Positions 6,940 to 27,245 of a stretch of 64,000 nucleotides of DNA are shown piece after piece. This DNA is from Dyella jiangningensis (lineage in GTDB: Bacteria; Pseudomonadota; Gammaproteobacteria; Xanthomonadales; Rhodanobacteraceae): assembly GCF_003264855.1 (NCBI RefSeq), contig NZ_NFZS01000007.1, positions 1 to 64,000 on the forward strand, written 5' to 3'. The stretch's first letter is position 1, and each line of letters begins with the position of its first letter. A program made the translations under genes and the position numbers. Below the pieces are notes generated by a model that saw only the letters and a program-made list of their open reading frames with translations, was not told where the DNA came from and did no database searches.

Positions 6940-8214
6940 AGGCTGGGTCCGCTTCTTCGCGAGCGGCGTTGCCTCCGGCGGCGCGGGTTCCCAGCCGAAC
7001 ACGCTGCGTCCGCCGTAGGCGTGCGAAAGACGGCGCTCTTCGGCAATCAGCCCGGGGACGGACGGACCACGCGCATCCCGCTCCAGCCGGCGCGACTGCT
7101 CGTCCAGCCGACGCAGCGCCGCCATGCGCTCGTCGTTCCCCAGCTTCGACTGCGTGATCGCGCTCTTCAGTACGTCGATGGTGTGGTCGTACACGCGCGT
7201 AGGCACGGGGAACGGGTGGCGATCCTTGCCGCCGTGCGCCATCGAGAAGCGCGCCGGGTCGGTAAAGCGGCACGGTGCACCATGCAGTACCTCGGCCACC
7301 ATCGCCAACGCACGCACCGTGCGTGCACCCACGCCCGGCACCTGCAGCAGTTCGGTGAAATCCCTGGGGCCATTCGCCGCGGCGGCCGCGAGATTGCCGT
7401 GCAGGCGGCGCGTGACCACGTCGCTGGCGCGCACGTCATGATGGTCGGGCAGCATCAGGTGCGGCAGCAGTCCGAGTTGCAACGGCGCCTCGGGCCGTGC
7501 GCGATCGCCTTCGAGCAACTGCAACTCGCGCAGGATGCGGTCGGGGCCCAGCGTATGCAGCAGTTCCAGCTGCGCATCGCGCGAGTCGCGCGCACGACGG
7601 TCGGCGAGATTGATGATGCGTCCCTGGCCGGGGCCATCCACCGCGGCATGCGGATCATCGAGGAAACCTTGCAGGCCTTCCGACAGCCAGTGATAGCGAC
7701 GCGCCTGGCGGCGCTCGCCGTTCATGCCCTGCTGGATCACCACCCAGCGGCCTTCGTCGCTGACCACGAAGCCATGCAGGTACAGATCGAAACCGTCCTG
7801 CACCGCGGCGCTGTCCACCTTCGCCACCAGCCGGCTCGCCTGCGCCAGCGCGGCGCCGTCAAAACCCACGCGCTCGCCGATGCCCATGAGCTCCGCCGGC
7901 GTCGCGCGCGAGTGCTTGCCACGGCCGCCGCACACGTGGATGCCCAGCTCGCCGGACATCGGCGCGAGCCCACGCTTGAGTGCGCCGATCACGCTGGTGG
8001 TGATGCCGGAGGAATGCCAATCCATGCCCATCACGGCGCCGAAGCACTGGAACCAGAACGGATGCGCAAGACGACGCAGCAGTTCGTCGCGGCCGTATTC
8101 GCGCACGATCGCCTCGGCCATCAGCGCGCCAAGCTTCGTCATGCGATCGGCCAGCCAGCGCGGCACGCGGCCGCCATGCAGCGGCAGGTCGGCGCTTCCG
8201 GATCGTCGGCTCAT
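6937..8214 (-). CDS. DUF763 domain protein
   Basis: A 425-residue soluble protein that I recognise as DUF763, a family shared by bacteria and archaea with no established activity. Typical pieces are 'ADLPLHGGRVPRWLADRM' at the N-terminus, 'FGAVMGMDWHSSGITTSVIG', 'GGRGKHSR' and 'VPGVGARTVRALAMVAEVLH' around residues 300-320. That last segment looks like a helix-hairpin-helix, so nucleic-acid binding is a reasonable guess. I chose ATG 8214 (MSRRSGSADLPL) because the longer frame adds arginine-rich sequence unlike the family. The TAG stop is the tip of the repeat element's terminal inverted repeat. Confidence 0.8.
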   Translation of the reverse strand: MSRRSGSADLPLHGGRVPRWLADRMTKLGALMAEAIVREYGRDELLRRLAHPFWFQCFGAVMGMDWHSSGITTSVIGALKRGLAPMSGELGIHVCGGRGKHSRATPAELMGIGERVGFDGAALAQASRLVAKVDSAAVQDGFDLYLHGFVVSDEGRWVVIQQGMNGERRQARRYHWLSEGLQGFLDDPHAAVDGPGQGRIINLADRRARDSRDAQLELLHTLGPDRILRELQLLEGDRARPEAPLQLGLLPHLMLPDHHDVRASDVVTRRLHGNLAAAAANGPRDFTELLQVPGVGARTVRALAMVAEVLHGAPCRFTDPARFSMAHGGKDRHPFPVPTRVYDHTIDVLKSAITQSKLGNDERMAALRRLDEQSRRLERDARGPSVPGLIAEERRLSHAYGGRSVFGWEPAPPEATPLAKKRTQP

Positions 8215-8382
8215 GCGTTGGGAACTCCACGAACGGCGCGCACCCGCGCGCATGCGGGGTGAAGTATCGCAAAGCCGCGTCTCGCGTCGCGCGACGACAG
8301 CCACGCCCGCGGCCGGCTTTTGTCGTGTACGCGATAAGCGGGCGACAGGTTCAGACGCGCGCTCGGCGCTCGTACTGATGGC

Positions 8383-9714
8383 TCATTCGCGCGCGGCCAG
8401 CGCGCGATTCACCCGCAGCGCCAGCAGCGTGCACAACACGCCCGACAGCAGATAGGCACTGACCGCCACCAGCCCGAAGCGCATCGACAAACCCAACGCG
8501 ACCAGCGGCGCAAACGCCGCGCCGATCAGCCAGGCGAAGTCGGTGGTGAAGGCCGCGCCCGTATAACGCAGGTGCATCTCGAAGTTGGACGTCACGCTGC
8601 CGGCCGCCTGCCCGTAGGAAAGACCCAGACCGCCGAATCCAAGGATAATGAAGGCGTCCTGCCCCCACTTGCCGCCGCCCAGCAGCCATGGCGTGATCAG
8701 CGCGAAGATCGCGATCAGCGCGGCCATGGTGCCCAGCGTGGTGCGTCGACCCACGCGATCGGCCAGCAGGCCGGAGATGATCATGCCGAGGATGCACGCG
8801 AACGCGCCAATGATCTCCGCCACCAGCACCGAGTTCACCGGCTGCATCGAGCCGAGCACGATCCATGACAGCGGGAAGATCGTCACCAGGTGGAACAACG
8901 CGTAGCTGGCGAGCGCGGCGAACGCGCCGATGAAGATGTTGTAGCCCTGCGTGCGCAGGATGGTCAGGCTGCCGACGGGTTCGAGTTCGCGCTCTTCCAT
9001 CGCGACGGTGTATTCCTCCGTCACCACCAGGCGCAGGCGTGCGAACAAGGCCACCACATTGATGGCGAAGGCGACGAAGAACGGATAGCGCCAGCCCCAG
9101 TCGATGAAGTCTTCATCGGAAAGGCTTTCGTGCAGGAACAGGAACAAGGCGCCGGCCACCAGGAAACCGATCGGCGCGGAGAGTTGCCCGAGCATCGCGT
9201 ACCAGCCGCGCTTGTCCGGCGGCGCATTCAATGCGAGCAGCGAGGGCAGGCCGTCCCACGAACCGCCCAGCGCAATACCCTGCAGGATGCGGAACAGCAC
9301 CAGCAACCCGATCGCCCAGTCACCGACCTGTCGGTAGCTGGGCAGGAACGCCATGCCCGCCGTGGCGCTGCCGAGCAGGAACAGCGCGATGGTGAGCTTG
9401 GTGCCGCGACTCCAACGCCGCTGGAAATCCATGAACAACGCTGTGCCGAACGGCCGCGCGATGAAGGCCAGTGAAAAGACCGTGAAAGCGTAAAGCATGC
9501 CGTGCAGCGTGTCGGTGAAAGGAAACAGCACCTGCGGAAACACCAGTGCGCAAGAAATACCGAACACGAAGAAATCGAAGTGCTCGGACGTACGACCGAT
9601 GATCACGCCGACGGCAATCTCTCCGGGAGCCACCCTTGCGTGCGCATGCAGGCGACCGATCTGCTCCGCCGAGTGTTCCGGTGCGCCGCCATGTTCGGGG
9701 TACGTGCTTGACAT
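8383..9714 (-). CDS. MFS transporter, metabolite:H+ symporter type
   Basis: A 443-residue twelve-helix permease. The 'FDFFVFGISCALVFPQVLFP' opening, 'FIARPFGTALFMDF' and the loop-8/9 motif 'GLLADRVGRRTT' fit the MHS (ProP/KgtP-like) branch of the major facilitator superfamily, which couples uptake of organic acids or osmolytes to protons. The substrate is not evident. The start MSSTYPEHGG (ATG 9714) was preferred over an upstream in-frame extension that would run far into the shared divergent promoter region. It is divergent from cyoA with about 150 bp between starts. Confidence 0.85.
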   Translation of the reverse strand: MSSTYPEHGGAPEHSAEQIGRLHAHARVAPGEIAVGVIIGRTSEHFDFFVFGISCALVFPQVLFPFTDTLHGMLYAFTVFSLAFIARPFGTALFMDFQRRWSRGTKLTIALFLLGSATAGMAFLPSYRQVGDWAIGLLVLFRILQGIALGGSWDGLPSLLALNAPPDKRGWYAMLGQLSAPIGFLVAGALFLFLHESLSDEDFIDWGWRYPFFVAFAINVVALFARLRLVVTEEYTVAMEERELEPVGSLTILRTQGYNIFIGAFAALASYALFHLVTIFPLSWIVLGSMQPVNSVLVAEIIGAFACILGMIISGLLADRVGRRTTLGTMAALIAIFALITPWLLGGGKWGQDAFIILGFGGLGLSYGQAAGSVTSNFEMHLRYTGAAFTTDFAWLIGAAFAPLVALGLSMRFGLVAVSAYLLSGVLCTLLALRVNRALAARE

Positions 9715-16026: not shown

Positions 16027-16674
16027 TTACTTCGCGCGCAGCGCTGCCGCCTCGCGGGCAAGTTGTTCGATGCCGGCCCAGTCGCCGTTGCGCAGCTTGT
16101 CGGCCGGCGTCAGCCATGAACCGCCGACGCAGATGACGTTGGGCAATGACAGGAAATCCGGTGCCGTCGCGAGCGAGATGCCACCCGTGGGGCAGAACTT
16201 CATCTGCGGCAGCGGGCTGGCCCATGCACCCACCAGCTTGGCGCCACCGGCCGGCACCGCGGGGAAGAACTTCACGTGGCGATAGCCGCGTTCGAGCAGC
16301 GTCATCACTTCGCTCGCGGTGGCCGTGCCCGGCAACAGCGGAAGTTCGCTGTCGTCGGCCGCGTCGAGCAGGCCGGGTGATACGCCGGGCGATACCGCGA
16401 AGCGCGCACCGGCCTTCTGCGCCGCGCGAAGATCCTTGGCGCTGAGCACGGTGCCCACGCCGACCACGGCGCCTTCCACTTCCTCGGCGACCGCCTTGAT
16501 GGCGTCGAGCGCGGCGGGCGTGCGCAGCGTGATCTCGATGGCTGGCGTGCCACCGGCGACCAGTGCGCGCGCCATCGGCACCGCGTCACGCGCGTTTTCG
16601 ATGATCACCACCGGCACCACCGGCGCCAGGCGCAAGGTGGCTTCAACCTGCTGCTGTTTCTGTTCGATGCTCAT
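16027..16674 (-). CDS. eda: 2-dehydro-3-deoxy-phosphogluconate (KDPG) aldolase
   Basis: A 215-residue class I aldolase that splits KDPG into pyruvate and glyceraldehyde-3-phosphate, the last step of the Entner-Doudoroff path. The Schiff-base lysine is K135 in 'YRHVKFFPAV'; E47 and R51 in 'AIEITLRTP' and the phosphate loop 'GGISLATAPDFLSL' are also present. Length is normal. It is the fourth gene of zwf-pgl-edd-eda, 37 bp after edd. Confidence 0.95.
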   Translation of the reverse strand: MSIEQKQQQVEATLRLAPVVPVVIIENARDAVPMARALVAGGTPAIEITLRTPAALDAIKAVAEEVEGAVVGVGTVLSAKDLRAAQKAGARFAVSPGVSPGLLDAADDSELPLLPGTATASEVMTLLERGYRHVKFFPAVPAGGAKLVGAWASPLPQMKFCPTGGISLATAPDFLSLPNVICVGGSWLTPADKLRNGDWAGIEQLAREAAALRAK

Positions 16675-16711
16675 GGTGTTCCGTGAATGCGGTCAGAAGA
16701 AATGCGTTGCG

Positions 16712-18529
16712 TCAGAACACGCCCGCACCGAGATCGGCGGTGGTGGCGTTGCGGCGGAACATGCCGAAGAGCTCACGTCCCAGCCCGAACTGATGCGTGG
16801 ACAGGTCCGCCGTGGCCGGCACGCGCGCTTCGAATTCGGCCGCTTCCACCAGCACGTCCAGCTTTCCGTGCACGGCATCCAGGCGCACGATGTCGCCGTC
16901 GCGGATACGCGCGATGGCGCCGTTGTCCTGGGCTTCGGGCGTCATGTGGATCGCCGCCGGCACGCGTCCGGAGGCACCCGACATGCGGCCGTCGGTAAGC
17001 AACGCGATGCGATGGCCGCGGTCCTGCAGCACCGACAGCGTCGGCGTCAGCTTGTGCAGCTCCGGCATGCCGATCGCCTGCGGACCCTGGAAGCGCACCA
17101 CGGCGATGAAGTCGCGGTTGAGCTCGCCGCGCTCGAACGCCTTGCGCACATCGTCCTGGTCGTGGAACACGATGGCCGGCGCTTCGATGACGAGACGGTC
17201 GTCCGGCACCGAGGATACCTTGATCACCGCGCGCCCCAGGTTGCCGCTGAGCATTCGCAGGCCGCCGTCGGTCCGGAACGGCTCGGCCACGCCGCGCAGC
17301 ACGCCGCGGTTGCCGCTGTCCTTCGACACCGGCTTCCATACCAGCGCGCCGGCGTCATCCAGGTGCGGCACCTGCGTATAGCCGTCCATACCGGTGCCGA
17401 ACACGGTGCGCACATCGGCGTGCAGCAGGCCCTCGCTGAGCAGCTGGTCGATCAGGAAGGCCATGCCCCCGGCCTCGTGGAACTGGTTCACGTCGGCATA
17501 GCCGTTCGGATACACGCGTGCGAGCAGTGGGATCACCGAGGACAGTGCGTCGAATTCATCCCAGCGCAGCTCGATGCCTGCCGCACGCGCGATGGCGACG
17601 AGATGCAGCAGGTGATTGGTGGAGCCGCCGGTGGCGTGCAGGCCGATCACGCCGTTGACGATGGCGCGCTCGTCGATGATGTGGCCGAGCGGCAGGTGCG
17701 ACGAACCCGGTGCGCTCAGCTCGGCCACGCGCAGCACCGCTTCGCGCGTCAGCGCGTCGCGCAGCGGCGTGTCCGGCGCCACGAAGCTCGCACCCGGCAG
17801 ATGCAGGCCCATGATCTCCATCAGCATCTGGTTGGAGTTGGCGGTGCCGTAGAACGTGCAGGTGCCCGGCGCGTGATACGAAGCCGCCTCGGCCTCCAGC
17901 AGTTCGGCCTTGCTGGCCTTGCCCTCGGCGTAGGCCTGGCGCACCTTCGACTTCTGCTCGTTGCTGATGCCGCTGGGCATCGGGCCGCTGGGCACGAAGA
18001 TGCCGGGCAGGTGGCCGAAGCTCAGTGCGCCGATCAACAGGCCAGGCACGATCTTGTCGCAGATGCCCAGGTACAGCGCGCCGTCGAACATGTTGTGCGA
18101 AAGCGAGATGGCCGTGGCCATGGCGATCAGGTCGCGCGAGAACAGCGACAGCTCCATGCCGGCGCGGCCTTGCGTGATGCCGTCGCACATGGCCGGCACG
18201 CCACCCGCCATCTGCGCGGTGATGCCGATGTCGCGAGCGACGTTGCGGATCAGGTCCGGATAGCGCTCGTACGGCTGATGCGCCGAGAGCATGTCGTTGT
18301 ATGCGTTGATGATGGCGAGGTTGGGCGTATGGCCTTCGCGCAGGCGTTCCTTGTCGGTGGTGCCGCAGGCGGCGAAGCCGTGGGCGAGGTTGCCGCAGGA
18401 AAGACGCTCGCGATGCACGCTGCCGCCCTGCGCGCCATCGATGCGACGCAGGTACTCGGCACGCGATGCGCGGCTGCGCTCGCGCAGTCGCTCGGTGACT
18501 TCGGCAAGAACGGGGTGAAGCACGGTCAT
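16712..18529 (-). CDS. edd: 6-phosphogluconate dehydratase
   Basis: A 605-residue member of the IlvD/Edd family that dehydrates 6-phosphogluconate to KDPG using an iron-sulfur cluster. '[17 protein letters not shown]' and '[20 protein letters not shown]' carry the cluster cysteines, and '[17 protein letters not shown]' is the conserved C-terminal signature. The '[19 protein letters not shown]' segment is also typical. Length is close to E. coli Edd. It lies 67 bp after pgl and 37 bp before eda, all on the minus strand. Confidence 0.95.
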
Positions 18530-18596
18530 GTTCTGACTCCGGGGAATTTCAGGTGGCGCATGGCATGAGGCGCCTTGATTCGTGATGGCGACGCGC

Positions 18597-19310
18597 TTAC
18601 GGGCACCAGTACACGGCGACCGGCACGCGCTCCTGCGTCAGCACCGAGCGCACCGGGAAATGCGCGGCTTCGCCCAGGCCCAGCCGCGCATCGGCCAGCA
18701 GCTGGCGCTTGGCTTCGCCTTCGATGTGCAGGTACAGCGCGCGCGTCTGCAGCAGCGCGGACAAGGTGAACGTGATGCGCGGCTCGCCGGCGCCCGGTGC
18801 ACGCATCGGCAGCACGCGCACGTCGCTGTGGGCATCGAGCGCTTCGGGCAGGCGATCGCCGCCGGGAAAGAACGACGCCGTGTGACCATCGTTGCCCATG
18901 CCCAGCACCACCGCATCGAACGGCAGCGGCAGCGACGCCACGCGTGCGCGCAGGGCGACGAGTCCAGCCTCGGGCGTCGGCGCATCGGCATACAGCGGCA
19001 CGAATTGCGCGACCGATGCGGCGTGCTGCAGCAGCAAGGCCTTCACCATGGCGGCATTGGAACGCTCGCTGGTTTCGGGCACCCAGCGTTCGTCCACCAG
19101 GGTGACCTGCACCTTGGCCCAATCCACCGCCTGTCGCGACAGGCGCTCGAACAGATGCTTCGGCGTGCTGCCGCCGGATACGGCGAGCAGGGCATGGCCG
19201 CGTTCGGCAATGCCTTCGCGCAGGCGGTCGGCGAGTCGCTCGGCCAGGGCGTCGGCCAGGGCATGGCAATCGGTGAAGCTGTGGGTGGTGACGTTCAAGA
19301 TCGGCGGCAT
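18597..19310 (-). CDS. pgl: 6-phosphogluconolactonase
   Basis: A 237-residue protein of the DevB/Pgl family, hydrolysing 6-phosphogluconolactone to 6-phosphogluconate. It shows '[19 protein letters not shown]', '[17 protein letters not shown]' and '[16 protein letters not shown]', the three family motifs that build the phosphosugar site. I chose ATG 19310 ([10 protein letters not shown]); a longer frame adds a stretch unlike the family. It sits between zwf (120 bp upstream) and edd. Confidence 0.93.
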
Positions 19311-19430
19311 GTCGGGGAAATGTGGGCTGCGCGGATGACACACGCGTGGCGGGAAAACGAGTCTAGGCCCGGCGCCGCAACGCACAGGTGAAACACCTGT
19401 GCATGGCGCTCGACGGTGTCGGACATCGGC

Positions 19431-20930
19431 TTATTCACTGTCCTCGTTCCAGGTGCGACCGTCGCGCTCGATCAGCGCCACCGCCGCGCTCGGGCCCCAG
19501 GTGCCCGAGGTGTACGGTCGCGGCGACTCGCCGCTGTCCGCCCACGCGGCGAGGATGGGATCGGCCCAGTGCCACGCCGCTTCCACTTCGTCGCGACGCA
19601 TGAACAGGGTCGGGTTGCCGCGCACCACGTCGAGGATGAGGCGCTCGTACGCATCGGGCTGCTGCACGCCGAAGGCCTCGGCAAAGCTCATGTCCAGCGA
19701 CACGTGGCGCAGGCGCAGGCCGCCCGGACCCGGATGCTTGATGGTGACCCACAACTTGATGTTCTCGTCCGGCTGCAGGCGCAGCACCAGGCGGTTCTGC
19801 GCCAGCACGCCGGCCGACGGATCGAAGATCGAATGCGGCACCGGCTTGAACACCACCACGATCTCGGACACGCGCTCGGGCAGGCGCTTGCCGGTACGCA
19901 GGTAGAACGGCACGCCGGCCCAGCGCCAGTTGGCGATCTCGGCCTTCACGGCCACGAACGTTTCGGTGTTGGACTTGTGGTCCTTCAGCTCGTCGAGATA
20001 GCCCGGCACGCTCTGGCCTTCGGCCGCGCCCGCGCGGTACTGGCCGCGCACGGTGAGCTGGCTCGCGTTGCTTTCGTCGATGTGCTTGAGCGAGCGCAGC
20101 ACCTTGAGCTTCTCATCGCGCACCGCGTCGGGCGACAGCGAGGAGGGCGGCTCCATCGCCACCATGCACAGCAGCTGCAGCAGGTGGTTCTGCACCATGT
20201 CGCGCAGCGCGCCGGCATGGTCGTAATAGCCCGCGCGCTGACCCACGCCCAGCGTTTCGGCCACGGTGATCTGCACGTGGTCGATGTGCTCGGCGTTCCA
20301 CAGCGGCTCGAACAGGATGTTGCCGAAGCGCAGCGCCAGCAGGTTCTGCACCGTTTCCTTGCCGAGGTAATGGTCGATGCGATAGGTCTGCGATTCGTCG
20401 AACACGCGACCGACCGCGTCGTTGATCTGGTTGGCGCTCTTGAGGTCGCGGCCGATGGGCTTTTCCAGCACCACGCGCGCCTTGCCCTTGTTGAGGCCGT
20501 AGGTGCCAAGGCGGTTGCAGATGTCCACGAACAGCTCGGGCGAAGTGGACAGGTAGAACACGCGCACGTGATCGGGCTGGCCGCCGATGAGCGCGGCGAA
20601 GTCGTCCCAGCCGTCGTCCTTGCGCGCGTCCAGCGAGCGGTAATGCACGAGCTTGAGGAAGGCGTCGATCTTGCTCTTGTCGCCGCCGTTTTCCTGCAGC
20701 GCCTTGCGCGTGCTGGCGCGGTAACCGTCGTCGTCGAGACCCTCGCGGGCGATGCCGATGATCCGGCTGGTCTCGGGAATCTGCCCGTCCGCGTAGCGGT
20801 GGTACAGCGCGGGCAGCAGCTTGCGAACGGCGAGGTCGCCGGTTCCGCCGAAGATCACCAGGTCGAAGGGGTCGACCGGCAGGGGAGAAGCAGTCACTTC
20901 AGTCACCTCGAGCGATGCGGGGAGCGACAC
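19431..20930 (-). CDS. zwf: Glucose-6-phosphate 1-dehydrogenase
   Basis: A 499-residue enzyme that oxidises glucose-6-phosphate to the lactone with NAD(P)+. The N-terminal dinucleotide motif 'VIFGGTGDLAVRKLLPALY', the 'EKPIGRDLKSA' segment and the catalytic-site 'YRIDHYLGKE' are intact. The start appears to be a GTG at 20930 (MSLPASLEVTEV); another GTG at 'VTEVTASP' is possible, and no ATG lies nearby. First gene of the minus-strand Entner-Doudoroff cluster, divergent from the GntR/UTRA regulator, with repeated GGTAT/ATACC boxes in the 185-bp gap. Confidence 0.95.
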   Translation of the reverse strand: MSLPASLEVTEVTASPLPVDPFDLVIFGGTGDLAVRKLLPALYHRYADGQIPETSRIIGIAREGLDDDGYRASTRKALQENGGDKSKIDAFLKLVHYRSLDARKDDGWDDFAALIGGQPDHVRVFYLSTSPELFVDICNRLGTYGLNKGKARVVLEKPIGRDLKSANQINDAVGRVFDESQTYRIDHYLGKETVQNLLALRFGNILFEPLWNAEHIDHVQITVAETLGVGQRAGYYDHAGALRDMVQNHLLQLLCMVAMEPPSSLSPDAVRDEKLKVLRSLKHIDESNASQLTVRGQYRAGAAEGQSVPGYLDELKDHKSNTETFVAVKAEIANWRWAGVPFYLRTGKRLPERVSEIVVVFKPVPHSIFDPSAGVLAQNRLVLRLQPDENIKLWVTIKHPGPGGLRLRHVSLDMSFAEAFGVQQPDAYERLILDVVRGNPTLFMRRDEVEAAWHWADPILAAWADSGESPRPYTSGTWGPSAAVALIERDGRTWNEDSE

Positions 20931-20964
20931 GTGGCATGCATACCACGTGCGATGCCTGACGATC

Positions 20965-21106
20965 GTACCAGTGAAATACCAGACAACACCAGTTCCCCGG
21001 CGCGCCTTGGTCGGCCTACGTTGAGGAGGGATTCGACACCCGAATTGGTACCACCGGAAAGCCGCGTCGCAGCGCCTGATTGCGCGATTGGTATTCTCAT
21101 TGGTAT
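20965..21106. promoter_or_regulatory. Divergent zwf/GntR control region with repeated TGGTAT boxes
   Basis: The gap between the zwf GTG and the regulator ATG holds clustered boxes. TACCAGTGAAATACCAGACA runs from 20965, then ACACCAGTT; AATTGGTACCACC lies near 21043; and a direct repeat ATTGGTAT occurs at 21087-21094 and 21099-21106 (12-bp spacing). Boxes near zwf read ATACCA and those near the regulator read TGGTAT. Such arrays suit a GntR/HutC-type dimer acting on both promoters. No biochemical support is available from sequence. Confidence 0.5.
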
Positions 21107-21115
21107 CGTGCAGGC

Positions 21116-21868
21116 ATGGAAACCGCCCTCGTCAACGAATATCGCCGCCTCAGCCGTGACCCGGCCGTGAACCAGCCGCTGGCCTATCTGCGCCTGCGCC
21201 GGGCCATCCGCAACGTGGTCGAGCACCGGGACATCGAGCCGGGCCAGGCCCTGCCGAGCGAACGCGACCTGTCGCGCCTGCTGCAGCTGTCGCGCGTCAC
21301 CGTGCGCAAGGCCATCGCCGGCCTCGTCGAAGAGGGCCTGCTGAACCAGCGGCACGGCGCCGGCACCTTCGTGGCCGAGCGCATCATCAAGCCGATGTCG
21401 CGCCTCACCAGCTTCACGGAAGACCTGCGCGCGCGCGGCCTGAACCCGCGCTCGGAGTTCTTCGAGCGCAGCGTGGGCGAGGTGACGCCCGAGGAATCGA
21501 TGGCGCTCAACCTTTCGCCGGGCGTGCTGGTCGCGCGCCTGCATCGCGTGCGCTATGCGAAGGAAGAGCCCCTGGCGATCGAGCGCAGCGTGGTGCCCGC
21601 CAGCGTGCTGCCCGACCCGATGATCGTGCACGACTCGCTGTACCAGGTGCTGGAAACCCTCGGCGCGCGCCCGCGCCGCGCCTTGCAGCGCCTGCGCGCC
21701 GTGTCGTTGGGTGCCCAGCAGGCGCGCCTGCTGCACGTCCCGGCCGGCAGCGCGGGCCTCAACATCGAGCGGCGCAGCTTTCTCGACGACGGCCGCGTGG
21801 TGGAGTTCACCACCTCGTGGTATCGCGGCGACATCTACGATTTCGTGGCCGAACTGCAGACGGACTGA
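21116..21868 (+). CDS. GntR/HutC-family regulator with UTRA domain
   Basis: A 250-residue transcription factor. A winged helix-turn-helix lies at residues about 15-85 ('ALPSERDLSRLLQLSRVTVR', 'EEGLLNQRHGAGTFV'). A UTRA ligand domain follows (about 100-245, 'LTSFTEDLRARGLNPRSEF' to 'FTTSWYRGDIYDFVAEL'). UTRA domains bind small metabolites, often sugar phosphates or histidine-pathway intermediates. Being divergent from zwf-pgl-edd-eda, it is the probable controller of that cluster, in place of the RpiR-type HexR used by pseudomonads. ATG 21116 was chosen because it places METALVNEYRR just before the HTH and leaves the operator-like boxes upstream. Confidence 0.88.
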   Translation: METALVNEYRRLSRDPAVNQPLAYLRLRRAIRNVVEHRDIEPGQALPSERDLSRLLQLSRVTVRKAIAGLVEEGLLNQRHGAGTFVAERIIKPMSRLTSFTEDLRARGLNPRSEFFERSVGEVTPEESMALNLSPGVLVARLHRVRYAKEEPLAIERSVVPASVLPDPMIVHDSLYQVLETLGARPRRALQRLRAVSLGAQQARLLHVPAGSAGLNIERRSFLDDGRVVEFTTSWYRGDIYDFVAELQTD

Positions 21869-21877
21869 GGTCCGGCA

Positions 21878-22324
21878 CTAGAACGCCAGCGCCACCGACT
21901 GGCCCACGCCCGTGGCCTGCCACTGCGCGGTGAGTGCGAGGATGCATGCCCGCACGGCCTCCATGTCCTGCTCGTCCACCGCCAGCGGTTCGCACTGCCT
22001 GGCCTGGCAGGTCACCCGGTAGAGATCCAGCATGTCCGTCGGTGCGCTGCTCCATCCAGCCCATCCGTCGGCCTGGAACACTTCGACCAGCCGCTCCACG
22101 CCATCGCTTTCGGCTTCCGCGCCCATGCGGACGTCCGCTGTCTCGCCCGCGGCCAGACGCGTGACGAAGCCGCGCCTGCGCAGCACGCTTTCCACGGCGA
22201 AATGCACCATATCGTGCGGAATGATGCCCTGCTTCGGGCAATCGACCTGCTCGTTCGGCGCATCCTCGCGGACGACCTCCATGCGATCGTGCTTGCCGGC
22301 GCCTTTGGTGAAGATGAGCTGCAT
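21878..22324 (-). CDS. Conserved hypothetical protein (IPHDMVHFAVE motif)
   Basis: A 148-residue soluble protein I cannot assign. It opens MQLIFTKGAGKHDRMEVVRE and contains 'CPKQGIIPHDMVHFAVESVL', with two histidines and nearby acidic residues that could bind a metal. Short proteins with this 'PHDxxHxxVE' box occur in other proteobacteria as hypotheticals. It is divergent from the DUF3348 operon (121 bp between starts) and convergent with the GntR gene (9 bp between stops). Whether it shares regulation with the operon is unknown. Start taken at ATG 22324; longer frames would cross into the operon. Confidence 0.6.
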   Translation of the reverse strand: MQLIFTKGAGKHDRMEVVREDAPNEQVDCPKQGIIPHDMVHFAVESVLRRRGFVTRLAAGETADVRMGAEAESDGVERLVEVFQADGWAGWSSAPTDMLDLYRVTCQARQCEPLAVDEQDMEAVRACILALTAQWQATGVGQSVALAF

Positions 22325-22445: not shown

Positions 22446-23129
22446 ATGGCGCAGGACTCTCCACGAACAAGCATCCGCGGCTCGACGTTCATTCGCCTGC
22501 TGGCTCGCCTGACGGACGCTGACGTTTCCCCGTCCCGCTCGTCCCTCTCGGACCGGTTGAGCCAGTGGCTCGACTGGACGCATGCGATCGCGCTGTCCAC
22601 CGCGATGGATCGCCGGGCGTCCACGGAGGCTTTCGATGCCCCGCCCTTCGGCGATGCCGAGGCGGAAGAGTGCGCGCGCGTGCGCGCCTCGCTCGCGGAA
22701 GTGATCAAGGGCGCCGGGGAGAGCACCGACGGCGACGTGGAATACCCGGCCTTCCGCCAGCGCTACCTCACCATGCAACGCCGCATGCAGACCGCCACGG
22801 GCAACCTGCGTGGTCGGCTGCGCGACATGCTCGCGCAAAAGACGCCGGACATGGCGCGCCTCGCCGAGGTGGACGCGGTGATGGAACGCGCGCTGAGTCC
22901 GCGCGAACATACGCTGCTCGCCGCCGTGCCCCATCTGCTTGGCGATCATTTCGAACGACTGCGCAAGCGCGCGCAGGACACACCGGCCGATGCGCCGCCC
23001 GCGGAGAACATCTCTGCCGGCGCATGGCTCGACACTTTCCGCAAGGACATGCAGAGCGTGTTGCTCGCCGAACTGGATGTTCGTTTTCAACCGGTCGAAG
23101 GGCTGCTCGCAGCGCTTCGCACCCGCTAA
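22446..23129 (+). CDS. DUF3348 protein, first gene of stator-like operon
   Basis: A 227-residue, mostly helical soluble protein with no signal or membrane segment. The opening 'STFIRLLARLTDADV' and 'SDRLSQWLDWTHAIALSTAM' fit the DUF3348 family as I recall it; function is unknown. The charged middle ('RQRYLTMQRRMQTATGNLRG') suggests helix-bundle packing against a partner. It is followed after 10 bp by the MotA/ExbB-like gene and then by an OmpA-like and a DUF2894 gene, all overlapping, so it is presumably a cytoplasmic partner of that membrane complex. Translation starts at ATG 22446, just downstream of a palindrome over a -10-like box. Confidence 0.75.
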   Translation: MAQDSPRTSIRGSTFIRLLARLTDADVSPSRSSLSDRLSQWLDWTHAIALSTAMDRRASTEAFDAPPFGDAEAEECARVRASLAEVIKGAGESTDGDVEYPAFRQRYLTMQRRMQTATGNLRGRLRDMLAQKTPDMARLAEVDAVMERALSPREHTLLAAVPHLLGDHFERLRKRAQDTPADAPPAENISAGAWLDTFRKDMQSVLLAELDVRFQPVEGLLAALRTR

Positions 23130-23139
23130 CTGGTCAATC

Positions 23140-25233
23140 ATGTTCAGAAACCTCCTCAATCTCGGCGTGTTCCTCGTTGGCCTCGCCGCCATCGGCTGGA
23201 TCGGCATCGGCTACATCGGTTCCAACCCGCTGGGCGCAGCCGTCGCGGCACTGATCGCCGCGTGCTACCTCGCCGGTGCCTTCGAACTGCATCGATATCG
23301 CCAGGCCACGGGCTCGCTGCTGCGCGCCGTTGCGGATCTGTCCACCGCGCCCGCCAGTCTGGGCGCATGGCTGGAACGCCTGCATCCCAGCGTGCGCAAC
23401 CATGCGCGGCTGCGCATCGAAGGTGAACGCGCAGCGATGCCCACGCCGGCATTGACGCCTTACCTGGTCGGCATGCTGGTGCTGCTGGGCATGCTGGGCA
23501 CGCTGCTTGGCATGATGGCCACGCTGCGCGGCACCGGCCTCGCACTGGAAAGCGCCACCGACCTTGAGGCGATGCGCGGCTCGCTTGCCGCGCCGGTCAA
23601 GGGCCTGGGCTTTGCGTTCGGTACCTCGATTGCCGGTGTCGCCAGCTCGGCCATGCTCGGCCTGCTGTCCGCGCTGAGCCGCCGCGAGCGCATGCAGGCG
23701 ACGCAGCTGCTCGATGCGAAGGCCGCGACCACGCTGCGCGCGTTCTCGAAGACACACCAGCGCGAGGAAGCGTTCAAGCTGCTGCAGCAGCAGACGGCGC
23801 AGATGCCCGCGCTGGTCGAGCATCTGCAGGCGATGATGACTGCCATCGAACAACAGAACGTCGCGGCGCACGAGCGCCAGATGGCCAGCCACGAGGCCTT
23901 CCACGCACGTACCGAAGCCGTCTATACGCAGCTGGCTTCGTCCGTTGAAACGTCGCTGAAGGAAGGCATCGCCGGCAGCGCCAGTGCGGCCAGCGCGGCA
24001 CTGCAACCGGTGGTGGAGGCGACCATGGCCGGCCTCATGCGCGAAACGGGTGCGCTGCACGACAAGCTTTCGCAGGCCGTGCAGCGCCAGCTCGACGGCG
24101 TGTCGGCGCAACTGGAGACGACGACCAAGGACGTGGCAGGCCTTTGGCGCGACGCAGTGGCCGAACATCGCGACGCCAATGGCAAGCTCGTCGGGCAGCT
24201 GGGCGAGACCCTTGATCAGTTCAGCGCCACGTTCGAACAGCGCGCCAGCCACCTGCTGCAGAACACGTCGACCCAGCTCGAGACCGCAACGAGCAACACT
24301 GCCCAGGCGTGGAACGATGCGCTGTCGCGCCAGGACACGCTCAACGCACAGTTGGCCGAGCGCAACCAGCAGGGGCTCACTGCGGCCGCTGCTGCCTTCG
24401 AGGAACATGCGGCGTCGCTGGTGCGCGTCGTGCAGGCTTCGCACACCGACCTGCAGGCCGCTTTGGAAGCCCGTGACCAGCAGCGACTGTCGGCCTGGAC
24501 CGAAACCCTCGGCGCGATGACGGACGCCCTGGGCAAGCAGTGGGAGCATGCCGGCGAACAGGTGGCCCAGCGCCAGCAGGATATCTGCGACACGCTCGCG
24601 CAGACCGCGCGCGGCATCACCGCCGAAGCGCAGTCGCACGCCAAGGAAACCATCGCGGAGATCTCGCGACTGGTACAGACCGCCTCCGAGGCACCGAAGG
24701 CCGCTGCCGAAGTCATTGCCGAGCTGCGCCAGAAACTTTCCGACAGCATGGTGCGCGACACCGCCATGCTGGATGAACGCGCACGCCTGCTGGGCACGCT
24801 GGAAACCCTGCTCGACGCGGTCAACCATGCCTCGACCGAACAGCGCGAAGCCGTCGATGCGCTGGTCGGTACGTCGGCCGCGCTGCTCGAACGCGTCGGC
24901 ACACGCTTCACCGACCACGTCGAAGCCGAAACAGGCAAGCTTGAGACGGTGGCCGCACAGCTCACCAGCAGCGCCATCGAAGTAGCGAGCCTGGGCGATG
25001 CCTTCGGCGCCGCCGTGCAACTGTTCGGCCAGTCGAACGAGATGCTGATGGAGCGCCTGCAAGGCATCGAAGCCGCGCTGGACAAGTCGCTCGCTCGCAG
25101 TGACGAGCAGCTCGCGTACTACGTGGCGCAGGCGAAGGAGGTCATCGACCTCAGCATGCTGTCGCAGAAGCAGATCATCGAGGAAGTGCAGCTGCTTGCC
25201 GAACAGCGTACCGCCGGGGCCGACGCGGCATGA
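23140..25233 (+). CDS. DUF802 protein: MotA/ExbB/ZorA-like stator subunit with long coiled-coil tail
   Basis: A 697-residue inner-membrane protein. Four hydrophobic helices lie at about residues 5-27, 31-49, 107-128 and 154-180. The last two carry the MotA/TolQ/ExbB signature ('LVGMLVLLGMLGTLLGMMAT' and 'LGFAFGTSIAGVASSAMLGL'). Residues 181-697 are a nearly unbroken charged helical tail rich in Ala, Glu, Gln and Thr, strongly coiled-coil in look, with methyl-accepting-like or apolipoprotein-like periodicity. That architecture (stator channel plus very long cytoplasmic tail) is that of ZorA in Zorya defence. It lies next to a MotB/OmpA-like gene with ATGA overlap, so the pair likely forms a proton-driven 5:2 motor. 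I recall the family as DUF802. The start at ATG 23140 leaves helix 1 at the N-terminus. Confidence 0.8.
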   Translation: MFRNLLNLGVFLVGLAAIGWIGIGYIGSNPLGAAVAALIAACYLAGAFELHRYRQATGSLLRAVADLSTAPASLGAWLERLHPSVRNHARLRIEGERAAMPTPALTPYLVGMLVLLGMLGTLLGMMATLRGTGLALESATDLEAMRGSLAAPVKGLGFAFGTSIAGVASSAMLGLLSALSRRERMQATQLLDAKAATTLRAFSKTHQREEAFKLLQQQTAQMPALVEHLQAMMTAIEQQNVAAHERQMASHEAFHARTEAVYTQLASSVETSLKEGIAGSASAASAALQPVVEATMAGLMRETGALHDKLSQAVQRQLDGVSAQLETTTKDVAGLWRDAVAEHRDANGKLVGQLGETLDQFSATFEQRASHLLQNTSTQLETATSNTAQAWNDALSRQDTLNAQLAERNQQGLTAAAAAFEEHAASLVRVVQASHTDLQAALEARDQQRLSAWTETLGAMTDALGKQWEHAGEQVAQRQQDICDTLAQTARGITAEAQSHAKETIAEISRLVQTASEAPKAAAEVIAELRQKLSDSMVRDTAMLDERARLLGTLETLLDAVNHASTEQREAVDALVGTSAALLERVGTRFTDHVEAETGKLETVAAQLTSSAIEVASLGDAFGAAVQLFGQSNEMLMERLQGIEAALDKSLARSDEQLAYYVAQAKEVIDLSMLSQKQIIEEVQLLAEQRTAGADAA

Positions 25234-25877
25234 ACGAGGACATCGACCTCGAAGGCGAATCATCGGCGCCGATCTGGGCCGCCTTCGGCGACCTGATGTC
25301 CGTGCTGCTGGGCGCGTTCGTGCTGATCCTGGTCGGCGTGATTGGCGTGCAACTGCAGCTTTCGCACCGGCTCGACGAAGAGGTGAAGCAGCGCCAGGCC
25401 GAAGCGCAACGACGCATGACCTTGGAACAGGCACTGGCCGCGCCGCTGGCTGCCGGCCGCGTCACGCTGGTCAATGGGCGCATCGGCATCCGCGGCAACG
25501 TGCTGTTCGCACTCAACTCCGACCAGCTGCAGCCGGAAGGCCGCGAGCTGCTGAAGAGCCTCGCCGGCCCGCTCACCAATTACCTGAAGTCCCGCGACGA
25601 GATCCTGATGGTGAGCGGCTTCACCGATGATCGCCAGGTGCGCGACGGCAACCGCCAGTTCACCGACAACTGGGAACTCTCGGCCGAGCGCGCACTCACC
25701 GTAACGCGCGCCTTGATCGCCGAAGGCGTGCCCGCGTCGTCGCTGTTTGCCGCCGCGTTCGGCGCGGAGCAGCCGGTGGGTTCGAACACCAGCGAAGAAG
25801 GGCGCGCGAAGAACCGTCGCGTGGAGATCGCGCCCATCCCCAAGCCTTCCAGCGCGACCGCCGCCTCCCATGACTGA
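25230..25877 (+). CDS. MotB/ZorB-like OmpA-domain protein, stator partner
   Basis: A 215-residue protein with a short cytoplasmic head (MNEDIDLEGESSAPIW), one membrane helix at about 17-41, a charged linker (45-68) and an OmpA-type peptidoglycan-binding domain (about 80-200). The helix starts 'AFGDLMSVLLGAF': Asp21 sits where MotB, TolR/ExbD and ZorB carry the proton-binding Asp. The OmpA domain shows 'FALNSDQLQPEGRELLKSLA', 'VSGFTDD' and 'AKNRRVEI', the usual peptidoglycan-contact positions. Start overlaps the DUF802 stop (ATGA) and its own stop overlaps the DUF2894 start by eight bases. Together these point to a membrane motor anchored to the cell wall. Confidence 0.88.
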   Translation: MNEDIDLEGESSAPIWAAFGDLMSVLLGAFVLILVGVIGVQLQLSHRLDEEVKQRQAEAQRRMTLEQALAAPLAAGRVTLVNGRIGIRGNVLFALNSDQLQPEGRELLKSLAGPLTNYLKSRDEILMVSGFTDDRQVRDGNRQFTDNWELSAERALTVTRALIAEGVPASSLFAAAFGAEQPVGSNTSEEGRAKNRRVEIAPIPKPSSATAASHD

Positions 25878-26505
25878 TGCGGCGACGCGCGCACGAACCA
25901 TGCTCGACGCGTGGCGCGCACAGCGAGCCGATCGCATCGACACCGTGCGCTTTCACTTCATCGACGCGATGGAACGACGCGCCCGCGAACAGACGGGCGC
26001 GGTGCGCAAGTTGCTCGACGGGAAGCTGTCGGCACTGCTCGATGCGTATGCGAACGACGTAGCGAAGGCGGCCTCCGCTCACGTCGCGACGACGGAATCG
26101 CCGGCCCGCGGCCCGCTCGGCGAACTGGTCGATGAACTCGCCCGCCACGCGGGCGACCGCCGCGTGCAACCGGATCCCGACGCGGAAGAGGCCGTTTCCC
26201 TGCCGCCACTGGAAGCACTGGACGAGTTCCAGCAGATCTGGTCGCAGGTGCGCACGCAGAGCCAGGTGCGCCAGTCGCTGGAACAGGCGCCGACGAACGC
26301 CGGTCCACTCAATTCGAGCGCACTCGTGCATCGCTCGATCGCACTCATGCGCGATCTCTCACCCGGCTACCTCCAGCAGTTCCTCGGCTATATCGACGAC
26401 CTGGCATGGCTCGAACAGCTGGGCGCGAGCAGCGGGCCGGTCATCAAGGACGCGCCTGCGCCTGCCGCGAAAAAGCGCAGCAGGCGCAAAGCCAAAGAAC
26501 CCTGA
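25870..26505 (+). CDS. DUF2894 protein, last gene of stator-like operon
   Basis: A 211-residue soluble protein of the DUF2894 family by recollection. It is helical ('MLDAWRAQRADRIDTVRFHF', 'SSALVHRSIALMRDLSPGYL', 'LQQFLGYIDDLAWLEQL') and ends in a basic tail (KKRSRRKAKEP), which could contact nucleic acid or acidic lipid. No enzymatic motif is visible. The ATG overlaps the stop of the OmpA-like gene by eight bases, so its product is probably made in a fixed ratio with that partner. The only informative context is the operon. Confidence 0.75.
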   Translation: MTDAATRARTMLDAWRAQRADRIDTVRFHFIDAMERRAREQTGAVRKLLDGKLSALLDAYANDVAKAASAHVATTESPARGPLGELVDELARHAGDRRVQPDPDAEEAVSLPPLEALDEFQQIWSQVRTQSQVRQSLEQAPTNAGPLNSSALVHRSIALMRDLSPGYLQQFLGYIDDLAWLEQLGASSGPVIKDAPAPAAKKRSRRKAKEP

Positions 26506-26597: not shown

Positions 26598-27245
26598 TCA
26601 GTGCTTCTGGGCCACGGCCGTCCATGCGGCCAGGCAGGCAAGCTTCTGCTCTTTGCGCCAGGGCTTGCCCACGGCCATGCCCAAAGGCTTCAACCGCGCG
26701 GTCATCTCATCCACCGACTGCCCGAGCACCTGCGCGGCACGATCAGGCAGCGACTTTTCGTCCAGCTCGACGAGCGCGATACCGCATCGCAGGGCCGCGG
26801 CACGAAACGCATCGCGCACGGCCAGCGCTTCGGCCACCGGCACGTGTTCGGCCCATGCCAGGCTGTAATCGAGCAGGTCGGTGATCCAACCGGCCCGGTT
26901 CACCAGCAGTGCGATCACGACGGGCTTGCAAGCCATCGCCTCAAGCTGTCGCGCGATCGCCTGAAGTCCCTCCGTTGCCCGGTGCTCCTGCCGACGGCGT
27001 CCTTCCGCCACGGTCGCTCTTGCCTCGTCCGTTGCGCGGCCCGAGGCATCTCGCGCCATCTCGGCCGCGAGTCGATACGGCTCGAAGGACAACCTGTCGT
27101 CGACCGTGCCGGTTTCAAGCGACACGGAGAGGACGACGCGGGGCTCGCCCCGTTCAATGGAGACACCGACCGCCACGGCACCGCCCTTGTGCGCATGCAG
27201 ACCAATGGCGGCGATGGTCGACGGATAGCGTTCGGGCCGTGGCAT
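26598..27245 (-). CDS. Hypothetical protein, possibly RNase H-like fold
   Basis: A 215-residue soluble protein not recognised with certainty. It opens MPRPERYPSTIAAIGLHAHK and alternates strand-like and helical segments ('PRVVLSVSLETGTV', 'CKPVVIALLVNRAGW', 'GIALVELDEKSLPDRAAQVL'), ending 'RKEQKLACLAAWTAVAQ'. The first strand with the G-rich turn and the late acidic helix recall RNase H/actin-like folds, but no complete acidic triad is obvious. The start at 27245 has GGGAG six bases upstream; an ATG two codons earlier is possible but too close to that site. It converges on the DUF2894 gene and follows the M14 peptidase start region on the same strand. Confidence 0.5.
   Translation of the reverse strand: MPRPERYPSTIAAIGLHAHKGGAVAVGVSIERGEPRVVLSVSLETGTVDDRLSFEPYRLAAEMARDASGRATDEARATVAEGRRRQEHRATEGLQAIARQLEAMACKPVVIALLVNRAGWITDLLDYSLAWAEHVPVAEALAVRDAFRAAALRCGIALVELDEKSLPDRAAQVLGQSVDEMTARLKPLGMAVGKPWRKEQKLACLAAWTAVAQKH

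What the first reader, a model, noticed from the sequence alone, without database searches (positions are those of the whole stretch)
22446..26505. Zorya-like motor operon with unknown partners: DUF3348 - MotA/ZorA-like (long tail) - MotB/ZorB-like - DUF2894
Four genes overlap or nearly overlap (10-bp gap, ATGA, 8-bp overlap). The second encodes a four-helix stator with the MotA/ExbB channel segments and a cytoplasmic tail of about 510 residues. The third encodes one helix with an Asp at the proton-site position plus a peptidoglycan-binding OmpA domain. This is the ZorA/ZorB design, but no ZorC, ZorD or ZorE genes are present. Instead two soluble, uncharacterised DUF proteins flank the motor genes. 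The inference is a proton-driven, wall-anchored membrane motor whose long tail relays a signal or force to DUF3348/DUF2894 partners, either an envelope-maintenance machine or an undescribed defence relative.
Basis: partly seen in the sequence, partly recalled or inferred. Interest (0 to 1): 0.9.

Follow-up and report, generated by a model that had tools for sequence, protein, structure and literature searches.

The report
Zorya type III anti-phage motor operon
The four genes are a known kind of bacterial anti-virus system, Zorya type III, built like a small membrane motor; comparing relatives shows that the motor's long tail changes length in steps that keep its coil in register, which may help explain how the motor passes its signal on.

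Summary
In detail: four overlapping + strand genes (22446-26505) encode DUF3348, a MotA/ExbB-like protein with a ~500-residue tail, a MotB/OmpA-like protein and DUF2894. The "unknown partners" are not new: this is the defining set of Zorya type III (Payne 2021), and PADLOC's ZorA3/B3/F3/G3 models hit all four genes very strongly. A Stenotrophomonas type III operon reduced phage plating in E. coli (PMC8565338, passages), so envelope maintenance is the weaker reading. No enzyme domain was found in either DUF protein; both are predicted all-helical.

One family property that my literature searches did not find described: ZorA type III tail length varies (625-1229 aa in 124 distinct proteins; the window's spacer length is commonest, 59 of 124) mainly by in-frame tandem duplications of 22-149 aa in the middle of the tail. 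The 11 unit lengths lie close to whole helical turns at 3.636 residues per turn (0 of 20,000 random sets as good). Motor and distal tail stay conserved. None of 20 type I-like ZorA proteins reached the same repeat score. This fits an extendable, phase-locked shaft carrying a fixed tip; what the tip does to ZorF/ZorG is inference.

The parts
22446..23129 (+). DUF3348 protein, 227 aa (called ZorF in Payne 2021 and Mariano 2025, labelled ZorG3 in PADLOC-DB); predicted all-helical, no enzyme domain found
   Evidence: 1.6e-83; 2.5e-90; pLDDT 82.8, pTM 0.78
23140..25233 (+). ZorA type III, 697 aa: four-helix stator part (about residues 1-200) and a helical cytoplasmic tail
   Evidence: ZorA3, 1195 bits; hydropathy; profile match to type I ZorA
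23467..23673 (+). ZorA residues 110-178: the two channel helices TM3 and TM4 with invariant T121, T162, S163
   Evidence: invariant columns; only significant PDB match is ZorA of 8VVN, E 6.8e-6
23830..24639 (+). ZorA variable middle tail (about residues 231-500): the stretch in which relatives carry in-frame tandem duplications; none in the window itself. Mean commonest-residue frequency 0.64-0.75 by 50-residue block
   Evidence: no strong repeat in the window
24640..25230 (+). ZorA conserved distal tail (about residues 501-697; mean commonest-residue frequency 0.77-0.90 by block)
25230..25877 (+). ZorB type III, 215 aa: one membrane helix and an OmpA peptidoglycan-binding domain (residues 92-196)
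   Evidence: OmpA 9.2e-19; ZorB3 1.5e-117
25290..25292 (+). codon of ZorB Asp21, the presumed ion-site aspartate, identical in 81 of 81 aligned ZorB proteins
25870..26505 (+). DUF2894 protein, 211 aa (ZorG in the papers, ZorF3 in PADLOC-DB); helical, with a basic C-terminal tail predicted with low confidence
   Evidence: 2e-57; 3e-79; net charge of last 30 residues at least +3 in 80 of 80; pLDDT 76.4, pTM 0.42

Best explanation
This is a Zorya type III anti-phage operon of a Dyella-like bacterium (DUF3348-ZorA-ZorB-DUF2894). Shown or well supported: gene content, order, family membership of all four proteins, channel and wall-binding residues, bipartite tail conservation. Inferred: five ZorA and two ZorB form an ion-driven motor held to the cell wall by the ZorB OmpA domain; the five ZorA tails bundle into a long cytoplasmic shaft made of an extendable hendecad/heptad middle and a conserved tip; on phage infection the motor is released, turns or twists the shaft, and the tip recruits or gates the two helical soluble proteins DUF3348 and DUF2894. 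Because no nuclease or helicase was found in the operon, either the two DUF proteins form an undescribed effector (the basic DUF2894 tail could touch nucleic acid) or the motor itself, gated by them, is the effector.
For: PADLOC ZorA3 1195 bits, ZorB3 1.5e-117, ZorF3 3e-79, ZorG3 2.5e-90. Order conserved in 77 of 80 named loci, 3 cut at contig ends. No fifth gene recurs: apart from the ZorA fragments at contig ends in L075, L078 and L084, the most widespread neighbour family is near the operon in 3 of 35 location groups. ZorA channel profile matches type I ZorA (hhalign E 5.1e-7, prob 92; PDB 8VVN chain C E 6.8e-6). ZorB D21 in 81 of 81. Defence activity of a Stenotrophomonas type III operon against some of the phages tested in E. 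coli, and the requirement of ZorA tail, ZorB wall domain and the ion-site Asp in types I and II (PMC8565338 passages; PMC11890865 abstract and section 6 part 1).
Against: No phage test of this operon. ZorA type III gives no PDB match as a single sequence and, as a full-length profile, only helical bundles and apolipoproteins. Near-fixation in the genus (18 of 19 genomes), neighbours that are not defence genes (10 window neighbours, 0 PADLOC matches at 1e-5; 112 neighbour genes of 17 relatives, 7 PADLOC families in at most 3 genes each at 1e-10) and genus-wise inheritance are less island-like than usual for defence. The roles of DUF3348 and DUF2894 are not shown anywhere I looked.
Confidence: 0.85

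Rival explanations
1. A housekeeping envelope machine (Tol/Ton/Mot-like) that is only incidentally protective: ZorAB energises DUF3348/DUF2894 for wall or membrane upkeep.
For: 18 of 19 genus genomes carry it; window neighbours are metabolic or regulatory with no PADLOC match; base composition equals its surroundings (GC 0.67); largely genus-wise inheritance (15 label changes, minimum 10, shuffled 46.5).
Against: Patchy in the family (80 of 195 genomes) and rare in the class (9 of 377); its place differs among relatives; a type III operon gave protection in E. coli (PMC8565338 passages). DUF2894 frames holding a stop occur in 3 of the 83 genomes with a match (G090, G092, G111) and one ZorA is out of frame (L104), so loss seems tolerated.
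Confidence: 0.1
2. The tail-length series is only slippage of repeat DNA in any long coiled coil; register is kept because the bundle must fold, and tail length has no functional meaning.
For: A helical bundle disfavours out-of-phase insertions whatever its job; copies are DNA tandem repeats (261-nt unit, 5.0 copies, 86% matches; 393-nt unit, 4.5 copies); lengths change often on the tree (at least 30 changes among 75 operons).
Against: 59 of 124 distinct proteins across several families keep exactly the same spacer length; none of 20 type I-like ZorA proteins reached the repeat score used, although these also have long helical tails. The distal tail is conserved while the middle is not.
Confidence: 0.5
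3. An orphan or accessory flagellar stator (MotAB-like) rather than a Zorya motor.
For: ZorB matches MotB-type OmpA domains (3KHN, E 1.3e-16) and a weak MotB plug model (0.27).
Against: The genome has two other places matching MotA_N, neither in this contig; the ZorA channel profile's only significant PDB match is a Zorya ZorA; gene partners are DUF3348 and DUF2894.
Confidence: 0.02

Closest known systems
Zorya type III (ZorA-ZorB-DUF3348-DUF2894; Payne et al. 2021, PMC8565338)
   Same: Same four families, same operon, same order in 77 of 80 relatives
   Different: Nothing in the window itself. What I add is a family property: variable ZorA tail length by in-register tandem duplication. Naming conflict: the papers call DUF3348 ZorF and DUF2894 ZorG, PADLOC-DB labels them the other way round
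Zorya types I and II (cryo-EM 8VVN, 8VVI in PMC11890865; 8QYD series in the PDB)
   Same: ZorA/ZorB motor with channel helices, ion-site Asp in ZorB, OmpA wall domain, long helical ZorA tail
   Different: No ZorC, ZorD or ZorE among the neighbours scanned. PMC11890865 section 6 states that component size is well conserved within each of families I and II; in type III ZorA it is not
Flagellar MotAB, ExbBD, TolQR
   Same: Five-plus-two stator design by inference; peptidoglycan-binding MotB-like domain; invariant Asp in the B-subunit helix
   Different: No MotA_N match in the window; very long tail; different partner genes

Membership tests
Zorya type III | ZorA and ZorB of type III | tested here: met
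   PADLOC ZorA3 1195 bits, ZorB3 E 1.5e-117
Zorya type III | ZorAB flanked by DUF3348 and DUF2894 genes | tested here: met
   Pfam and PADLOC; coordinates
Zorya type III | Protection against phages | not testable with these tools
   Shown for a Stenotrophomonas operon in PMC8565338 (passages), not for this one
Zorya type I | ZorC and ZorD genes beside ZorAB | tested here: not met
   0 PADLOC matches in 10 neighbouring window proteins; the two flanking operon genes are DUF3348 and DUF2894
Zorya type II | ZorE (HNH nickase) gene beside ZorAB | tested here: not met
Stator-type ion-driven motors (Mot/Exb/Tol/Zor) | Asp in the single helix of the B subunit and Thr/Ser facing it in the A subunit | tested here: met
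   ZorB D21 in 81 of 81; ZorA T121, T162, S163 invariant in 22 and in 14 sequences. That these face the Asp is inference from MotA/ZorA structures
Stator-type ion-driven motors (Mot/Exb/Tol/Zor) | 5:2 stoichiometry and ion flow | not testable with these tools
Stator-type ion-driven motors (Mot/Exb/Tol/Zor) | Sequence kinship of the A-subunit channel helices | tested here: met
   hhalign with type I-like ZorA over 60 columns, E 5.1e-7, prob 92; 8VVN chain C E 6.8e-6
Flagellar MotA | MotA_N domain (PF20560) | tested here: not met
   Two matches in the genome, on contigs C4 and C1, none in the window

The most novel reading that the evidence does not exclude
Type III Zorya is a motor with an evolvable drive shaft. 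The ZorA tail has a conserved tip carried on a repeat shaft that evolution lengthens or shortens only by whole-turn modules (about 4 to 22 nm each at 1.5 A per residue), so that the angle between motor and tip is kept while reach changes. This would mean that torque or twist, not just membrane leak, is what reaches the non-enzymatic partners DUF3348 and DUF2894, and that shaft length is tuned per lineage.
Probability: 0.35. Interest if true: 0.7.

Novelty: new member of a known kind. Interest (0 to 1): 0.4.

Why it matters
What remains open in the field is how ion flow through ZorAB at the wall becomes an effect in the cytoplasm, and type III is the sharpest case because no nuclease or helicase was found in it. 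A natural series of relatives with the same motor and tip but shafts of different, in-register lengths is a ready-made experiment on whether the tail transmits torque, position or neither. The family also lacks any solved structure that I could find for its ZorA tail, DUF3348 or DUF2894.

Tried and rejected
Undescribed defence relative: rejected, the set is Zorya type III.

Fifth gene or hidden effector beside the operon: none recurs across 35 location groups of the 80 named loci plus the window.

Defence island: not supported, but only 112 of 154 listed neighbour genes of 17 relatives went into the scan, and the 7 PADLOC families found (Mads-, AriA- and AbiLi-like among them) were not examined one by one.

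Empty-site test in Dyella: inconclusive. zwf is found in 19 of 20 genus genomes (the miss, G596, is 86% complete). In 15 relatives fetched, the GntR gene lies next to zwf in 14 and about 7.6 kb from it in one, no gene of the operon is in the stretch fetched, and what follows differs. The gene right of the operon lies elsewhere, without other window genes, in 9 relatives (G049 was fetched for the left-hand gene). I did not measure how much synteny decays in general, so horizontal movement is not proved.

Promoter and terminator scans: 0 promoter-like and 3 terminator-like sites, no more than in shuffles. tRNA: none in the window.

Type I control: chosen from NF033914 matches; 20 loci tried. Nine of them are below that model's curated cut-off, and L206 is cut at a contig end, so they are 'type I-like'. 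One search missed 10 because of strand; one search repaired that but lost L121, whose value (50) comes. The highest score was 108 (L130, offset 51, 38% identity), so a weak old duplication there is possible.

Limits of the phase test: the threshold of 150 and the list of 11 unit lengths were picked by me. Low-scoring best offsets in shortened tails (44, 136, 92; scores 48-73) and the offset 55 seen in 65 of 67 base-length loci were left out. Spacer changes are not independent of unit lengths, and several long spacers drift from phase by 0.24-0.32 turn (110, 230, 261, 348). 56 of 62 lengthened proteins have a spacer change that is an exact multiple of the best offset; the exceptions are 62/51, 185/62, 230/22, 531/131, 502/131 and 7/40. 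10 of the 134 in-frame loci were the same genomes fetched twice; counts of 124 are after removing them.

Full report
What is there. Four + strand genes overlap or nearly so at 22446-26505: DUF3348 (227 aa), ZorA (697 aa), ZorB (215 aa), DUF2894 (211 aa). Pfam gives DUF3348, DUF802 (within the ZorA tail), OmpA and DUF2894. PADLOC gives ZorG3, ZorA3, ZorB3 and ZorF3 with very strong scores. NCBIfam has no family for the two DUF proteins and only a negligible ZorA_1 match (0.26), but it names ZorB PRK09040, hypothetical.

What it is called. Payne et al. 2021 (PMC8565338; passages seen) found 6,401 such gene sets, named them Zorya type III, cloned one from Stenotrophomonas nitritireducens into E. 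coli and saw significantly reduced plating of at least one of the phages tested for each system. Mariano et al. 2025 (PMC11890865; abstract, section 6 part 1 and passages seen) describe types I and II in detail and mention type III as DUF3348 plus DUF2894. Burkholderia cenocepacia transcripts of one to two genes of its Zorya III changed during infection (PMC12584637; one passage seen). The two papers call DUF3348 ZorF and DUF2894 ZorG; PADLOC-DB labels them the other way round. The Nature paper on the type I system is not held and is only recalled.

Kinship of the motor. Searching solved structures with ZorA alone gave nothing, and a profile of the whole protein gave only helical bundles and apolipoproteins. 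A profile of the motor part alone found ZorA of Shewanella (8VVN chain C, E 6.8e-6) as the only match below 0.1. Profile against profile, it matches type I-like ZorA over the channel helices (E 5.1e-7, probability 92). ZorB D21 is the same in 81 of 81 proteins. ZorA T121, T162 and S163 are invariant. So membership of the ZorA/ZorB family is met by sequence; stoichiometry and ion flow are inferred.

Partners. DUF3348 is predicted all-helical (pLDDT 82.8, pTM 0.78), DUF2894 helical with a poorly defined C-terminal half (76.4, 0.42). Neither has a PDB match at E 0.001 or better, and no enzyme domain appears in the Pfam or NCBIfam scans. The last 30 residues of DUF2894 carry a net charge of at least +3 in 80 of 80 relatives, median +5. 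DUF3348 and DUF2894 go together: of 195 family genomes, 80 have DUF3348 and 83 DUF2894; the 80 are shared, on one contig in every case. The DUF2894 model also rings in Corynebacterium glutamicum among the 14 control genomes, so PF11445 alone is not proof of Zorya.

Where it occurs. In the window's genus (Dyella by the nearest named relatives) 18 of 19 genomes at least 90% complete have it, counting the window's own. In the class sample, 9 of 377 do. It was found in 27 of 72,556 plasmid records; the 20 listed are 0.59-3.2 Mb replicons, and 20 of the 27 are typed non-mobilizable. It was found in none of 50,697 phage records. Within Stenotrophomonas, Xanthomonas and part of Paraburkholderia it tends to sit in one place per group, while across groups and within Dyella the place differs. 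The window's copy shares its place with three of the 17 other Dyella genomes that carry it (L149, L153, L163). Neighbouring genes are mostly ordinary. A tree of 75 operons is largely genus-wise (15 label changes, minimum 10, shuffled mean 46.5), with the Burkholderiales set (29 rows) placed inside a group otherwise made of Dyella and Rhodanobacter (quick tree, midpoint root), which suggests at least one transfer between orders.

The tail. Measured between a motor anchor and a distal-tail anchor, 134 in-frame ZorA loci (124 distinct proteins) were compared; three loci lacked the motor end, and one (L104) was out of frame. 59 of the 124 have exactly the window's spacer of 255 residues; 65 differ, by 26 distinct amounts from -73 to +531. 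Whole proteins run from 625 to 1229 residues. Self-comparison shows why: in 60 of the 65 there is an internal repeat scoring 100 or more, against at most 53 in 60 shuffles of the window's tail (base-length proteins reach up to 124 at offset 55, so 100 alone is not proof, but 51 of 124 exceed 150). Repeat units of 22, 29, 40, 51, 62, 69, 84, 87, 98, 131 and 149 residues were read off. DNA tandem repeats confirm several, such as 5.0 copies of 261 nt in L067, 3.0 in L071 and 4.5 copies of 393 nt in L090. Two close relatives, L065 and L067, differ by one 87-residue copy, and the remaining copies pair one to one at 93-99% identity.

Register. The 11 unit lengths lie within 0.1 turn of whole turns at 3.636 residues per turn (mean cosine 0.954; 20,000 random sets averaged 0.38 and none reached it). 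The 26 spacer changes give 0.748 against 0.297 with 0 of 5,000, but these are not independent of the units and the longest drift. Hydrophobic periodicity of base-length tails is 3.68 in the middle (hendecad-like) and 3.58 in the distal part, both above all 500 shuffles. So the tail has two parts of different coil type, and the 3.636 of the units is not identical to the 3.68 of the base middle. Conservation follows: blocks from residue 301 to 500 have mean commonest-residue frequency 0.64-0.70, 501-600 have 0.86-0.90, and the channel region has 0.90-0.93. On the tree, 19 length states among 75 operons need at least 30 changes. As a control, 20 type I-like ZorA proteins stayed below 150, the best 108. 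Mariano et al. write that component size is well conserved within types I and II. My searches for this property in type III found no description, but most subscription papers are not held.

How it most likely works. A wall-anchored ion-driven motor (inferred from family) carries a helical shaft (supported by periodicity) whose conserved tip meets DUF3348 and DUF2894 (inferred from conservation, constant gene partnership and, for types I and II, the published need for the tail). Keeping the coil in register while length changes is what a continuous bundle requires, so register alone does not prove that torque is passed on; that is the bold reading, set at 0.35.

Verdict. A correct observation of a known system, with a family-level property worth a follow-up. 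Interest 0.4.

Noticed in passing
L104 (Paraburkholderia tropica) 7025-9238: ZorA frame is broken in this named relative although all four genes are still recognisable. Not mended.
   Followed up: no
G090, G092, G111 (unnamed family genomes): The DUF2894 frame contains an in-frame stop in these three of the 83 genomes with a DUF2894 match, suggesting occasional decay of the system.
   Followed up: no
window 16027-21868: An apparent Entner-Doudoroff gene block (zwf, pgl, edd, eda by my reading of the sequences) ends in a GntR/UTRA regulator. The gene pair zwf-GntR is kept across the genus while what follows GntR is a variable stretch, which in the window holds the Zorya operon.
   Followed up: partly
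L067 10789-10905: A separate short tandem array (9-nt unit, 13.3 copies) lies where DUF2894 begins in this Burkholderia relative (DUF2894 coordinates).
   Followed up: no
PADLOC-DB models PDLC00652-PDLC00658: The ZorF and ZorG labels are swapped relative to the text of Payne 2021 and Mariano 2025.
   Followed up: yes
window 21878-22324 and 26598-27245: The two genes next to the operon encode proteins with no Pfam match at 0.001; the right-hand one occurs alone elsewhere in several Dyella genomes.
   Followed up: partly
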